NCBI RefSeq assembly: GCF_001578805.1
Contig: NZ_KQ969161.1
Coordinates: 139,122-185,803, forward strand
Reading direction: 5' to 3'
DNA: 46,682 bases
DNA from: Streptococcus sp. DD10
Lineage (GTDB): Bacteria; Bacillota; Bacilli; Lactobacillales; Streptococcaceae
Part shown: positions 5,438 through 32,679 of the stretch, piece by piece
How positions within the stretch are numbered: the first letter of the stretch is position 1
Layout: each line of letters starts with the position of its first letter
Program-made: the position numbers and the translations under genes
The notes under the pieces: generated by a model
What the model saw: only the letters and a program-made list of their open reading frames with translations
The model's database searches: none
What the model was told of the DNA's origin: nothing

Positions 5438-7149
5438 TTAATTACTTGCAGCAATCTGATTATTGACATAAGTAGTCACATTTTGCTCATGATCAGCATA
5501 GTTATTTGCAAAGTATACCTTACCTGTTTTAACATCTGCAACAAAGTATAGGTAATCCGTACTATTTGGGCTAATTACTGCACTAATAGCTGATAAACTT
5601 GGACTATCCACTGGACCAGGCATCAAGCCTGCATTTCGATAAATATTAAACGCCGAATCAATATTAGTATCAATTTGAGCATCTTCTTGAAGGGTTGTTG
5701 CTTCTCCTAGTTTCCCTTGAGCATAAAGGATAGCAATGTTACTTTGCAACGGCATTCCTTGCGCAATTCGGTTAAAGAAGACGCTAGCAATATTTTTACG
5801 ATCTTCATCTGTTGCCCCTTCTTTTTCAACCAATGAAGCAAGACTCAGTACTTCATTTACCGTGCGGTTTTGAGCATTTATTTGATCATAATAACCAACC
5901 AAGTTGGTATCCATTGCCCCTAACATCTCATCAATTAGAGTCTCTACAGTTGTTTCAGAAGTAATGTTATAGGTTGCAGGGAAGAGATAACCTTCTAGAC
6001 GATAGCGAACACCAGATTCTAATGTTGGAAGACTTGCAAGCAATTGAGGATATTTTGCAACCATTTGGTTAATAAAAGTTTCATCTTGAACCTTATTCAT
6101 AAAATCATCTGATGAAATCTTTTGAGCTAAATTTTTCGTTGCTTCTGCTGTCGTTGCTGCAATCTGCTCTAAAGTATATCCTTCTGGTATGGTTAACTTA
6201 GCCAAAACTGGAAGTTGTGGCGTTTCTGTTCCACCTTTTTGAAGAGCCTTAGCTAGTTCATCTACACTCATCGATTTTTGAAGATTATAATAACCCGACT
6301 GGAAACCTGAGTAATTTTTGACTTGAGTATAGAGATTAAAAACCGTAGCATTACGAATTAAACCTGCTTCTTCAAGAGCCGCTCCGATAGCCTTTGAACC
6401 AGAACCAGCAGGAATTTCAACCGTTACATACTCTGTTGATTTGGCATCAATTGGGCGAAGGGCTGAATTGATATAGTTATATCCAACAAATCCCGTAACC
6501 CCTAGAACCAGCAAAAAGAAGACCAAAACAAAGCCAACAATGCGTCCAGCAGTCCGATTTTGTCTTTTTTCTTTACTTGACGTGTTGAACGAACATAATC
6601 CGAATGCTTTTGATTTATTGCTTTTTGAGCTTTCTTTTTGGCAGCTTCTTCAAGAACTTCAGAGTGAGGTACTTTTACTGCTGGATTTTTAGAAACAGGC
6701 GATGCGACATAATCTTCTGAGGCACTCGCTTTTTGAGCATAATGAACAGAAATTGCAGCCTTAGTAGTTTCTGAGTCTATTTTATTTTCTTGATTTCCTT
6801 GTTCAGTAGATGCTGTTTTCGTATCAGTTGATTCACTAGCTTGATTCGAATCTTGTGGTTCATCCTCACCCTCTAATTCAGCCTGGACAGCATCTAATTG
6901 AGCTTGCAATGCTAGCATCTCTTCAATTGTAGGATAAACAACCGTTGGATTTTCAGGTTCTGAGTCATTAGATTCTAAAGCAGTTTCACTGGTTGTTAGG
7001 TCTGCCTCCCCTTTTGTTTGATGTCCAACTTTAGCCCCAAACAAATCATCAGTACTAGTCTCTTTGGGAACTTTTTTTATATTTTCTAAATCTCGCAGAA
7101 TCTGTTCCTTAAAACTAAGATCCTGTTTATTATCATTCTTATCAGTCAA
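5438..7149 (-). pseudogene. mltG: Endolytic murein transglycosylase MltG, frame-broken
   Basis: MltG cleaves nascent peptidoglycan and controls side-wall growth in streptococci. Two frames together make one protein. The N-terminal half (7149-6502) is a charged cytosolic region beginning SFKEQILRDLE. The C-terminal half (from about 6560 down to 5438) holds the membrane helix (IVGFVLVFFLLVLGVTGFVG), a LysM-like region and the YceG catalytic domain with ASLVEKEGATDEDR, where the first E of EKEG is the catalytic glutamate. The frames join near 6558-6570 (A4 and A6 tracts). One extra A, or a -1 shift, gives 570 aa. As read, the 0-frame product ends before the membrane helix. The start is TTG at 7149 behind GGAGG. 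The enzyme is essential in pneumococcus, so sequencing error is likely. Separate translation of the C half is possible but has no clear start. Confidence 0.85.
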
Positions 7150-7377: not shown

Positions 7378-7875
7378 TCATTTTAATTGAGGATTTTCCC
7401 AAACCATATCATACCAGGTTTCACCAGCATACGTTGATGCAGATAGTCCCTCATTGATAAACCCCTGTTTTTCATAATAGGCGATTAAATAGTCATGACA
7501 GGTTAAATTCAGTCCTTGTCGACTATCTTTGATAGCTAGATTTTTCATTGCTTGAAGAAGGAGGCTACCAAGTCCCTGACTTTGCGCCTTTTGCGCAATA
7601 GATAAAGAAGTGATAGAGATATACCCTCCTTTTTCATGTGAAAAATCTTGAACTTCAAAGAAGGAAGAATCTTTGAGATGTCGCCCTTTAACCACAGGCC
7701 CCTCTATATAACCTACTATTTCTCCTTCTTCTTCTGCTAGTAAAAAACTAGTTTTAATTGTTCTTATATGCTCAGCAAGAATATCTTTTGAGATGGCTTC
7801 CTCTACTGAAAAATTTGCGATTTCAATGGCATAAATCGCCTCTAAGTCAGCAATTTTTGCTTGTCTTATATTCAT
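7378..7875 (-). CDS. GNAT-family N-acetyltransferase (tandem copy 2)
   Basis: Predicted acetyl-CoA-dependent acetyltransferase of unknown substrate. The 165-aa protein is one GNAT domain. The acetyl-CoA binding motif A is visible as LSIAQKAQSQGLGSLLLQAM, and the C-terminal region NLTCHDYLIAYYEKQGF is typical. I chose ATG 7875 because AAGGAG lies 6 bases upstream, inside the last codons of the neighbouring gene. A longer in-frame start at 7905 would overlap that gene. It is a clear paralogue of the next gene upstream, sharing NLTCHD, the YYE..GF block and W.DMVWENP, so the pair arose by tandem duplication. Confidence 0.88.
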   Translation of the reverse strand: MNIRQAKIADLEAIYAIEIANFSVEEAISKDILAEHIRTIKTSFLLAEEEGEIVGYIEGPVVKGRHLKDSSFFEVQDFSHEKGGYISITSLSIAQKAQSQGLGSLLLQAMKNLAIKDSRQGLNLTCHDYLIAYYEKQGFINEGLSASTYAGETWYDMVWENPQLK

Positions 7876-7877
7876 TC

Positions 7878-8387
7878 TTACTCCTTGTAGTAGGGATTCT
7901 CCCAAACCATGTCAAACCAAGTCGTCCCGCCGTGAACAGAATCTGAAATCCCCTCATCCCTAAAACCGTTCATTTCATAATAAGAAAGCAGATTGTCATG
8001 GCAGGTCAAATTGATCCCCTGACGATTTTGCTCGCTGGCTCTTTCTTTGAGAGCAGCTAAAAGCAGGGTCCCCACTCCCTGCCCTTGAAAATCCGGACTG
8101 ACAGACAAACTCTGGATAGCGATAAAGCCACCTTCCTTTGGATTGACTGTAACTTTGGCAAACAAATCATCCGTCAGATGACGCGAGAAAATAGCTGGAC
8201 CTACGATATAACCTGCAATCTGACCATGAAAATCAGCCACCAAAAAGGTGTCGGCGATCCATTCAATCCGCTCTTTCAACGCCGCTGGGCTGGCTGCTTC
8301 TTCCTCAGAGAAATTGAGGTTTTCGAGGCGCACCAGTTCCTCCCAATCCGACAGCTGAACATTTCTGATTTTTATCGGACTTTCCAC
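7878..8387 (-). CDS. GNAT-family N-acetyltransferase (tandem copy 1)
   Basis: 169-aa single-domain GNAT enzyme. Motif A reads LSVSPDFQGQGVGTLLLAAL (acetyl-CoA pyrophosphate loop QGQGVG), and the C-terminal block NLTCHDNLLSYYEMNGF matches its downstream paralogue. It starts with GTG at 8387, eight bases after GGGAGA and just past the murC stop, so it is probably translated from the murC transcript. The end is two bases from the next start, indicating coupling. The substrate cannot be told from sequence. Confidence 0.88.
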   Translation of the reverse strand: MESPIKIRNVQLSDWEELVRLENLNFSEEEAASPAALKERIEWIADTFLVADFHGQIAGYIVGPAIFSRHLTDDLFAKVTVNPKEGGFIAIQSLSVSPDFQGQGVGTLLLAALKERASEQNRQGINLTCHDNLLSYYEMNGFRDEGISDSVHGGTTWFDMVWENPYYKE

Positions 8388-30891: not shown

Positions 30892-31941
30892 TTATTCGTC
30901 AACCTGTCTTTTTAGTTTATAGGGAGTATAAAGGAAGATAAAACAAAGTGTCATCCCTATCAATAACAAAATGTAAATCTTCTCTCTCAAAAAAAACACG
31001 GTAAATATACTTTGGATTAGAAGGACGCTTCCAGCAATGGCTTGTATCACTTCTTGAACTCCTTTTTGTTTTAACTCTTTTTTTAGTGGAAAAAGTATAG
31101 TTAAATATTGGTAATCATAGGCTTGATATAACGCCATTAGTTGAAAAATCAAAAGATAATTTAACAAAACAGCTAATAAAATAGCTAATAAACTATTTCT
31201 CACAACTATGATAAAAAAGATAGAAAGAAGCAGCAAACGAATCACCAAACCAAAAAATTCACCATTACGTAAAAAAGAACGTAAAAACAAATTCGTCCAA
31301 GTTTTTCTGCTAGTCTTCTGCAAAAAATTCAAAATAAAATCAAGATATTTTCTTCGTTTTACACTATTTGAAATTCCCTTGACAGTTGTAAAAAGTGAGA
31401 AAAATCGTAAAATGGATTGTTTTCGTCTGCTCTCTGTTTGAATAACCTGTTCCCATTTTAGGCTCTTTTGATTTAACAATTTTTTTGCCTGAAACTGAAA
31501 ATAAGAATATTTCAAAATAGCTAATAAAACCAGGTAACAAATAAAACCAAAAATTGATATCCCTAATTTTGCAAACACAGGATATAAAAGACTAAGCAAC
31601 ACTGTCTGCAGACTGACCCACAAAAAATAAGATTTTAAAGTCGATCGTTTTATCCAAGAATGAAGTTCACTTTCTTTTACTAACAAAAAATGCTTATCAG
31701 GTGTTTCTACATAAGTTGCGATTCCCCCAAATGGTAGCAGGAAAAGAGAAATGAAAACTAGGACAAGCTGAACTGGGAAATGATTCGTAGGAAAATCTTG
31801 CAAAAATTGGCTATATTGCATCGCCAGAAAAACGAAGAACATGAGCAAAAATAAAACGAAATGGTCATTAAAAACATATCGTGCGTATTTTAAACATTGA
31901 CTTATAAAAAGATTGCGTCTTTTGGTAAATAAGTTTTTCAT
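30892..31941 (-). CDS. ecsB: ABC transporter permease EcsB
   Basis: 349-aa polytopic membrane protein with about eight hydrophobic segments. Examples are VLFLLMFFVFLAMQY, LVLVFISLFLLPFGG and the C-terminal IYILLLIGMTLCFIFLY. It pairs with the upstream ATPase, sharing an ATGA overlap (start 31941, ATPase stop 31938-31940), which indicates translational coupling. The gene order hit/ecsA/ecsB matches B. subtilis, where Ecs affects intramembrane proteolysis, secretion and competence. The transported substrate is unknown. Confidence 0.87.
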   Translation of the reverse strand: MKNLFTKRRNLFISQCLKYARYVFNDHFVLFLLMFFVFLAMQYSQFLQDFPTNHFPVQLVLVFISLFLLPFGGIATYVETPDKHFLLVKESELHSWIKRSTLKSYFLWVSLQTVLLSLLYPVFAKLGISIFGFICYLVLLAILKYSYFQFQAKKLLNQKSLKWEQVIQTESRRKQSILRFFSLFTTVKGISNSVKRRKYLDFILNFLQKTSRKTWTNLFLRSFLRNGEFFGLVIRLLLLSIFFIIVVRNSLLAILLAVLLNYLLIFQLMALYQAYDYQYLTILFPLKKELKQKGVQEVIQAIAGSVLLIQSIFTVFFLREKIYILLLIGMTLCFIFLYTPYKLKRQVDE

Positions 31942-32668
31942 TTTACCTCCTCTTGAGTTAAGAGAAGATAAATATCATTGAGCGAGGCCTCTGGCATAGT
32001 AAACTTCTCTTGTAACTCTTGTAATGTCCCTTGAGCTCGAACACACCCTTTATGTAAGATAACAAAGCGATCACACATTTTTTCTGCTGAATCAAGAACA
32101 TGGGTACTCATCAAAATTGACTTTCCTTTTTCTTTTTCTTTTTTAAAAGGTTTGTTAAATCAGCAATCGCCAGTGGGTCCAAGCCCAAAAAAGGCTCGTC
32201 AATGATAAAAAGACTAGGTTCAACAATAAACGCACAGATAATCATAACCTTTTGCTTCATTCCTTTTGAGAAATTTATTGGAAACCAGTCCAACTTATCC
32301 GTTAATCGAAAGAGTTCTAAAAGTGGCTGTGCACGCTCCAATCCTTCTTCAACCGAAAAATCATAGGCCATCGAGACAATCTCTATATGTTCTCGTAATG
32401 TCAATTCTTCATACAAAGAAGGGGTTTCAGGGATAAAACCGATTTTTTTCCGATAGTCTTCCGGGGCACTAAGCAAAGAAATTCCATCAATTTCAATAGT
32501 TCCCTCATATGGAGTCAAAAGACCAATGATTTCATTAATCGTGGTTGATTTCCCAGCCCCATTAAGTCCAATCAATCCTACCAGTTCGCCATTTCGAACA
32601 CTAAAGGAGATATTCTTTAGTACTGGAAGCTGAACATAGCCACCTGTTAATTGTTTTATTTCTAACAT
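31938..32668 (-). pseudogene. ecsA: ABC transporter ATPase EcsA, frame-broken at A_AAA_AAG
   Basis: ATP-binding subunit of the Ecs transporter. The first frame (32668 to 32111) has Walker A GLNGAGKST, signature-like NFSKGMKQKV and Walker B LFIIDEPFLGLDP. It then ends in KKKKKKESQF. The -1 frame continues to 31938 with the switch region SILMSTHVLDSAEKMCDRFVIL and a normal C terminus ending EEVK, overlapping ecsB by ATGA. One extra A in the run at 32139-32144, or a -1 ribosomal shift on the heptamer A_AAA_AAG (32144-32138, in zero-frame phase TTA AAA AAG), restores 243 aa. I take ATG 32668, with CGGAG upstream, over GTG 32674. A truncated product would lack the switch histidine. Confidence 0.88.
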
Positions 32669-32679
32669 ATTCACTCCGA

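What the first reader, a model, noticed from the sequence alone, without database searches (positions are those of the whole stretch)
32138..32144. ecsA breaks exactly at an in-phase A_AAA_AAG slippery heptamer
The zero frame reads TTA AAA AAG and stops ten codons later. The -1 frame from the same point restores the EcsA C terminus (SILMSTHVLD...) and the ATGA overlap with ecsB. A_AAA_AAG is the strongest known bacterial -1 frameshift signal (dnaX). If real, two ATPase forms would be made, one lacking the switch histidine. A missing A from sequencing is the plainer alternative.
Basis: partly seen in the sequence, partly recalled or inferred. Interest (0 to 1): 0.6.

Follow-up and report, generated by a model that had tools for sequence, protein, structure and literature searches.

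The report
One-base gap breaks pheromone-exporter gene
A streptococcal transporter gene looks cut in two because it is one base short at a run of A's; other genes sampled from this draft genome show the same kind of one-base gap, so a sequencing error or a fresh mutation is far likelier than a built-in frameshift signal.

Summary
In detail: ecsA (minus strand, 32674 to 32111) leaves its frame at A_AAA_AAG (32138-32144), and the -1 frame gives the EcsA C terminus and the ATGA overlap with ecsB. In 138 of 138 other fetched ecsA loci (127 distinct) the gene is one frame with 15 bases between the LL and KG codons; here there are 14. So the break is a singleton. No SD-like element precedes the motif, and no stem-loop stands out downstream (z 0.17, 0.21). 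In a sample of this draft genome, 9 places among 341 matched proteins are each exactly one base short at an A or T run of 6-7; 3 of the 9 sit at an in-phase A_AAA_AAG. A probable tenth, mltG, lies in the same window at an out-of-phase A6 run. Best reading: homopolymer under-call, next a real recent indel; programmed frameshifting about 3%. No reads were available to separate error from mutation. The species does not group with Mitis by EcsA. EcsAB is the PptAB pheromone exporter, so a real indel would matter for quorum sensing.

The parts
32111..32674 (-). ecsA (pptA), zero frame: 187 codons from GTG 32674 (ATG at 32668) to TGA; holds the Walker A to D-loop part, no H-loop
   Evidence: Pfam ABC_tran PF00005 at 1.7e-30
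32138..32144 (-). AAAAAAG, in phase as A_AAA_AAG; the A6 run is 32139-32144; the place where the frames part
31938..32137 (-). C-terminal part of EcsA in the -1 frame, with the H-loop segment SILMSTHVLD
   Evidence: 100% frame agreement of this part with the N part in 138 other loci
30892..31941 (-). ecsB (pptB), intact 349-codon frame, start overlaps the -1 frame stop as ATGA
   Evidence: Pfam EcsB PF05975 at 1.3e-70
6565..6570 (-). A6 run at which mltG probably changes frame by -1; not an in-phase heptamer; same kind of lesion in the same window

Best explanation
The ecsA break is a one-base shortfall in an A-run that is special to this draft assembly, most likely an under-called homopolymer, and not a programmed frameshift. 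The organism's ecsA would then be one ordinary frame coding the EcsA/PptA ATPase, coupled to ecsB through ATGA. Shown: one base fewer than in 138 of 138 other loci; singleton; the same kind of shortfall at eight other places in the sampled genome, and probably in mltG. Inferred: that accurate reads would not show the shortfall.
For: Linker of 14 bases here against 15 in 138 of 138 other loci, 127 distinct. Both sides of the break keep family-like sequence with no other lesion. 9 one-base shortfalls among 341 matched G012 proteins, all 9 net -1 and none net +1, all at A or T runs of 6-7, among them CoaB, of which the genome has one copy, and PdhA. A probable tenth in mltG in the same window. 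Internal in-frame stops are no commoner here than in the comparison genome, 5 of 341 against 5 of 319, so general gene decay is not seen. A survey of 1106 complete genomes expects homology-validated singletons to be sequencing errors (PMC3711429, passages).
Against: No reads were available, and an error and a real indel give the same consensus. The A/T run-length spectrum is not truncated relative to G012: the 7-to-8 step is 0.138 in both, so under-calling, if present, is mild. The excess over G012 (9 of 341 against 3 of 319) is not significant, P 0.145. Four of the nine rest on matches of 44-60% identity. The sequencing method is unknown.
Confidence: 0.66

Rival explanations
1. A real, recent one-base deletion by strand slippage in the A-run, in the strain or a subculture. 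EcsA ends before its H-loop, ecsB loses its coupling, and PptAB-type pheromone export is lost or much reduced.
For: Singletons can be indels or errors (PMC3711429, passages). A6-A7 runs are natural indel sites. pptAB is of low essentiality in vitro in S. pyogenes (PMC11323703, passages), so loss could be borne in culture. The under-call is not visible in the run-length spectrum.
Against: The same lesion type is found in genes whose loss is less easily borne, such as single-copy CoaB, with no excess of in-frame stops. It would take many independent fresh deletions in one strain.
Confidence: 0.29
2. Programmed -1 ribosomal frameshifting at A_AAA_AAG makes full-length EcsA, and the zero frame makes a short form without the H-loop.
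For: The heptamer is in phase at the exact break. A_AAA_AAG is among the most efficient motifs in E. coli with stimulators, and over 0.10% without (PMC4066793, passages, section 20). A slip there would give the family's linker length of five residues (read).
Against: 0 of 138 other loci need a shift. In-phase A_AAA_AAG stands in this linker in 2 of 127 distinct relatives, both unbroken genes. Downstream folding z 0.17 over 81 bases and 0.21 over 200 (pseudoknots not modelled). No SD-like bases upstream (read). Without stimulators frameshift-prone heptamers in E. coli ran 2.1 to 10 times a no-motif level, which averaged about 0.055% (PMC4066793, passages). The short form lacks part of the ATPase core.
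Confidence: 0.03
3. Slippage of RNA polymerase on the A-rich tract, or phase variation by a changing tract length, switches EcsA on and off.
For: The tract is A6-G-A5-G-A5. Transcriptional realignment can use combinations of two shorter homopolymers (PMC3711429, passage).
Against: The longest run is 6; the same passage gives eight or more as the common case. The linker length is constant in 138 other loci.
Confidence: 0.02

Closest known systems
Singleton frameshifted genes of the GeneTack survey (PMC3711429)
   Same: One genome only, homologues in one frame, one-base change at a homopolymer; expected there to be errors or indels (passages)
   Different: That survey used complete genomes; this is a draft of 84 contigs
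E. coli dnaX programmed -1 frameshift (A_AAA_AAG)
   Same: Same heptamer in phase (dnaX motif in PMC3711429, passage)
   Different: Motif and split are not conserved here and no stimulators were found
PptAB/EcsAB pheromone exporter of streptococci (PMC5167397, abstract)
   Same: ATPase gene followed by an EcsB-family permease, ATGA coupling as in 81 of 128 distinct loci, own included
   Different: The ATPase frame is broken in this assembly

Membership tests
-1 programmed ribosomal frameshift, dnaX type | Slippery heptamer in phase at the frame change | tested here: met
   A_AAA_AAG, phase 2
-1 programmed ribosomal frameshift, dnaX type | Motif and need for a shift conserved in orthologues | tested here: not met
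   0 of 138 other loci split; in-phase motif in 2 of 127 distinct relatives, both unbroken
-1 programmed ribosomal frameshift, dnaX type | Downstream stem-loop stimulator | tested here: not met
   z 0.17 (81 bases) and 0.21 (200 bases); pseudoknots not modelled
-1 programmed ribosomal frameshift, dnaX type | Upstream SD-like element 6-17 bases before the motif | tested here: not met
   none on reading the bases printed
-1 programmed ribosomal frameshift, dnaX type | Measured shift in vivo | not testable with these tools
   needs a reporter or mass spectrometry
Programmed transcriptional realignment | Homopolymer of about eight or more, or a pair of shorter ones | tested here: inconclusive
   longest run is 6, but A6-G-A5-G-A5 is a chain of short runs (criterion from PMC3711429)
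Homopolymer indel or under-call | Exactly one base short of relatives at a homopolymer | tested here: met
   14 against 15 bases in 138 of 138 other loci
Homopolymer indel or under-call | Same lesion type elsewhere in the same assembly | tested here: met
   9 places among 341 matched proteins, ecsA included; mltG probable; excess over G012 not significant
Homopolymer indel or under-call | Reads that disagree with the consensus | not testable with these tools
   no reads held
EcsA/PptA ATPase | ABC ATPase next to an EcsB-family permease | tested here: met
   PF00005 and PF05975; orthologues in 58 of 58 other genomes searched
EcsA/PptA ATPase | Whole nucleotide-binding domain with H-loop in one frame | tested here: not met
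   H-loop segment lies in the -1 frame in the deposited sequence

The most novel reading that the evidence does not exclude
This streptococcus really carries one-base deletions at A-runs in a number of genes and bears them because ribosomes or RNA polymerase slip on A-rich tracts often enough to make some full-length protein, ecsA among them, so that pheromone export is set by slippage efficiency.
Probability: 0.03. Interest if true: 0.6.

Novelty: not a real feature. Interest (0 to 1): 0.07.

Why it matters
As a programmed signal it would be a new regulatory frameshift in a quorum-sensing peptide exporter; the evidence does not point there. If the indel is real, the strain should be impaired in SHP pheromone export, a testable loss. 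As it stands the case is a caution: in A-rich genomes a base lost from an A-run in lysine codons quite often leaves an in-phase A_AAA_AAG behind (45 of 244 A7 runs are so phased), so a motif at a broken frame is weak evidence for recoding unless it is conserved.

Tried and rejected
Programmed -1 frameshift: set aside for want of conservation and stimulators. Heptamer-specific tolerance across the genome: 3 of 9 breaks are at in-phase A_AAA_AAG, against 45 of 244 A7 runs so phased, P 0.22. Strand bias as a sign of biology: 8 of 9 breaks were counted as A-runs on the coding strand and 1 as a T-run, against 1003 and 431 such runs in ORFs, P 0.195; one of the 8 has both an A7 and a T6 at its junction. 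Gross homopolymer truncation of the assembly: not seen. A second intact ecsA: the next own hit listed is 38% identical. Naming the species: not possible; the nearest named EcsA N-terminal parts were S. orisasini (80.6%) and S. devriesei (79.4%).

Rows dropped before counts. One search gave 9 rows (8 query proteins) for the own genome; three rows with N at the junction and one with an over-extended query ORF were set aside, leaving 5. One search gave 14 own rows; 5 with net shifts other than one base were set aside (one of them with N), leaving 9. It gave 6 comparison rows; 3 were set aside likewise, leaving 3. The 341 and 319 are query proteins with a match of at least 40% identity, not counted once per gene. 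The scan did not flag mltG, which I found by eye, so 9 is a lower bound. A smaller first scan (50 proteins, 3 frame changes) was replaced.

Results that weaken the supporting cases. For CoaB, 11 of 12 same-genus genomes have a match and 2 of these list one stop inside the match. For mltG, the upstream piece found no match in 24 other genomes, none in the G012 sample and no NCBIfam family, so its membership rests on position, on frame length in relatives and on the basic stretch before the membrane segment; one of the 15 same-genus frames lists a stop. The EcsA tree puts the window's protein on a long branch of uncertain place, and no test of a single clade was run.

Papers. Searches were seen as listings. 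Six papers were opened: PMC4066793 (passages, and section 20), PMC3711429, PMC6520353, PMC11323703 and PMC7276704 (passages), PMC5167397 (abstract and outline).

Full report
What is there. The minus strand carries ecsA from GTG 32674 (ATG 32668). Its zero frame runs through TTA AAA AAG and ends at 32111. The -1 frame from the heptamer gives the H-loop segment and the C terminus and ends in an ATGA overlap with ecsB. The zero-frame protein matches Pfam ABC_tran and the next gene matches EcsB.

Comparison. Orthologues were sought in 58 other genomes, in 284 genomes of the genus search, own included, and in a named collection from which 80 loci were kept. Frame and linker were measured in the 140 loci fetched (L009-L148; 128 distinct sequences). 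The 138 loci from other genomes (127 distinct) are all in one frame with 15 bases between the LL and KG codons; the two fetched copies of the own locus have 14. I did not inspect the frame in genus genomes for which no locus was fetched; one search lists open frames of 240-286 codons for the best hit of each of the 58 other genomes. In-phase A_AAA_AAG occurs at this linker in 2 of 127 distinct relatives, both unbroken; 25 more have AAAAAAG out of phase. So neither the split nor the motif is a trait of the family.

Signals. The 81 and 200 bases downstream fold no better than shuffles (z 0.17 and 0.21; pseudoknots not modelled). No SD-like bases precede the motif (read). In E. coli, frameshift-prone heptamers without stimulators ran at 2.1 to 10 times the no-motif level, which averaged about 0.055% (PMC4066793, passages). 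The gene search in that paper asked for motif conservation and flanking stimulators among its criteria (section 20); ecsA shows neither.

Is the assembly prone to such breaks? Among 341 G012 proteins with a match, 9 places in this genome are exactly one base short, all at A or T runs of 6-7: ecsA, an RluA-family pseudouridine synthase, an ABC-F protein, CoaB, PdhA, and four that I would call Crp/Fnr-like, gamma-glutamyl-GABA-hydrolase-like, PlsY-like and CorA-like from the look of their G012 relatives (recalled, not searched). None was one base long (names of the first group). CoaB is present in one copy; PdhA is open in 12 of 12 same-genus genomes. The reverse scan, 319 own proteins with a match in G012, gave 3 one-base shortfalls in G012, at A6, A6 and T6 runs; the difference is not significant, P 0.145. 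Internal in-frame stops are level, 5 of 341 and 5 of 319, raw counts not curated.

A probable tenth case lies in the window itself. The piece 5438-6526 matches MltG. In 15 of 15 same-genus genomes its frame is 474-632 codons long, here 403. Just upstream, at the A6 run 6565-6570, the frame changes by -1 within the basic stretch before the membrane segment; four relatives read there show that stretch in one frame. The upstream piece itself has no detectable relative, so this case is less firm. The A6 run is not an in-phase heptamer.

Meaning of the heptamer. Of the nine breaks, three (ecsA, ABC-F, PdhA) sit at in-phase A_AAA_AAG. Of 244 A7 runs in the sampled ORFs, 45 are phased so that one base fewer reads as in-phase A_AAA_AAG; three of nine is unremarkable, P 0.22. 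AAAAAAG is no commoner in the genome than its reverse.

Against this reading. The run-length spectrum is not truncated, so any under-calling is mild; the excess of breaks over G012 is not significant; there are no reads, and an error and a real indel give the same consensus. I put error at 0.66, real indel at 0.29, programmed frameshift at 0.03 and transcriptional slippage or phase variation at 0.02.

Organism and function. By EcsA the window's species lies outside the clade (support 100/99) of Mitis, Sanguinis and Anginosus sequences, on a long branch whose exact place is unsure. The genes are also called pptAB (PMC11323703 and PMC7276704, passages), and PptAB exports SHP pheromones in S. pyogenes (PMC5167397, abstract). 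A full-text search for EcsA with frameshift and Streptococcus listed 5 papers; I opened one, which reports a missense burden in pneumococcal ecsA (PMC6520353, passages). I make no claim about what the other four say.

Noticed in passing
window 5438-7149 (-): mltG looks split by a -1 frame change at an A6 run (6565-6570), the same kind of lesion as in ecsA.
   Followed up: partly
L149-L188 (own genome stretches): Seven other sampled genes besides CoaB and ecsA are one base short at A or T runs of 6-7 (RluA-family, ABC-F, PdhA and four others).
   Followed up: partly
L209-L268 (G012 comparison stretches): The comparison genome also shows one-base shortfalls at A6, A6 and T6 runs in 3 of 319 matches, so it is not a clean control.
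   Followed up: no
window 7378-8387 (-): Two adjacent, similar-looking small acetyltransferase genes (weak RimI-like matches) overlap in tandem between murC and mltG; they look like a duplication and not a split gene.
   Followed up: no
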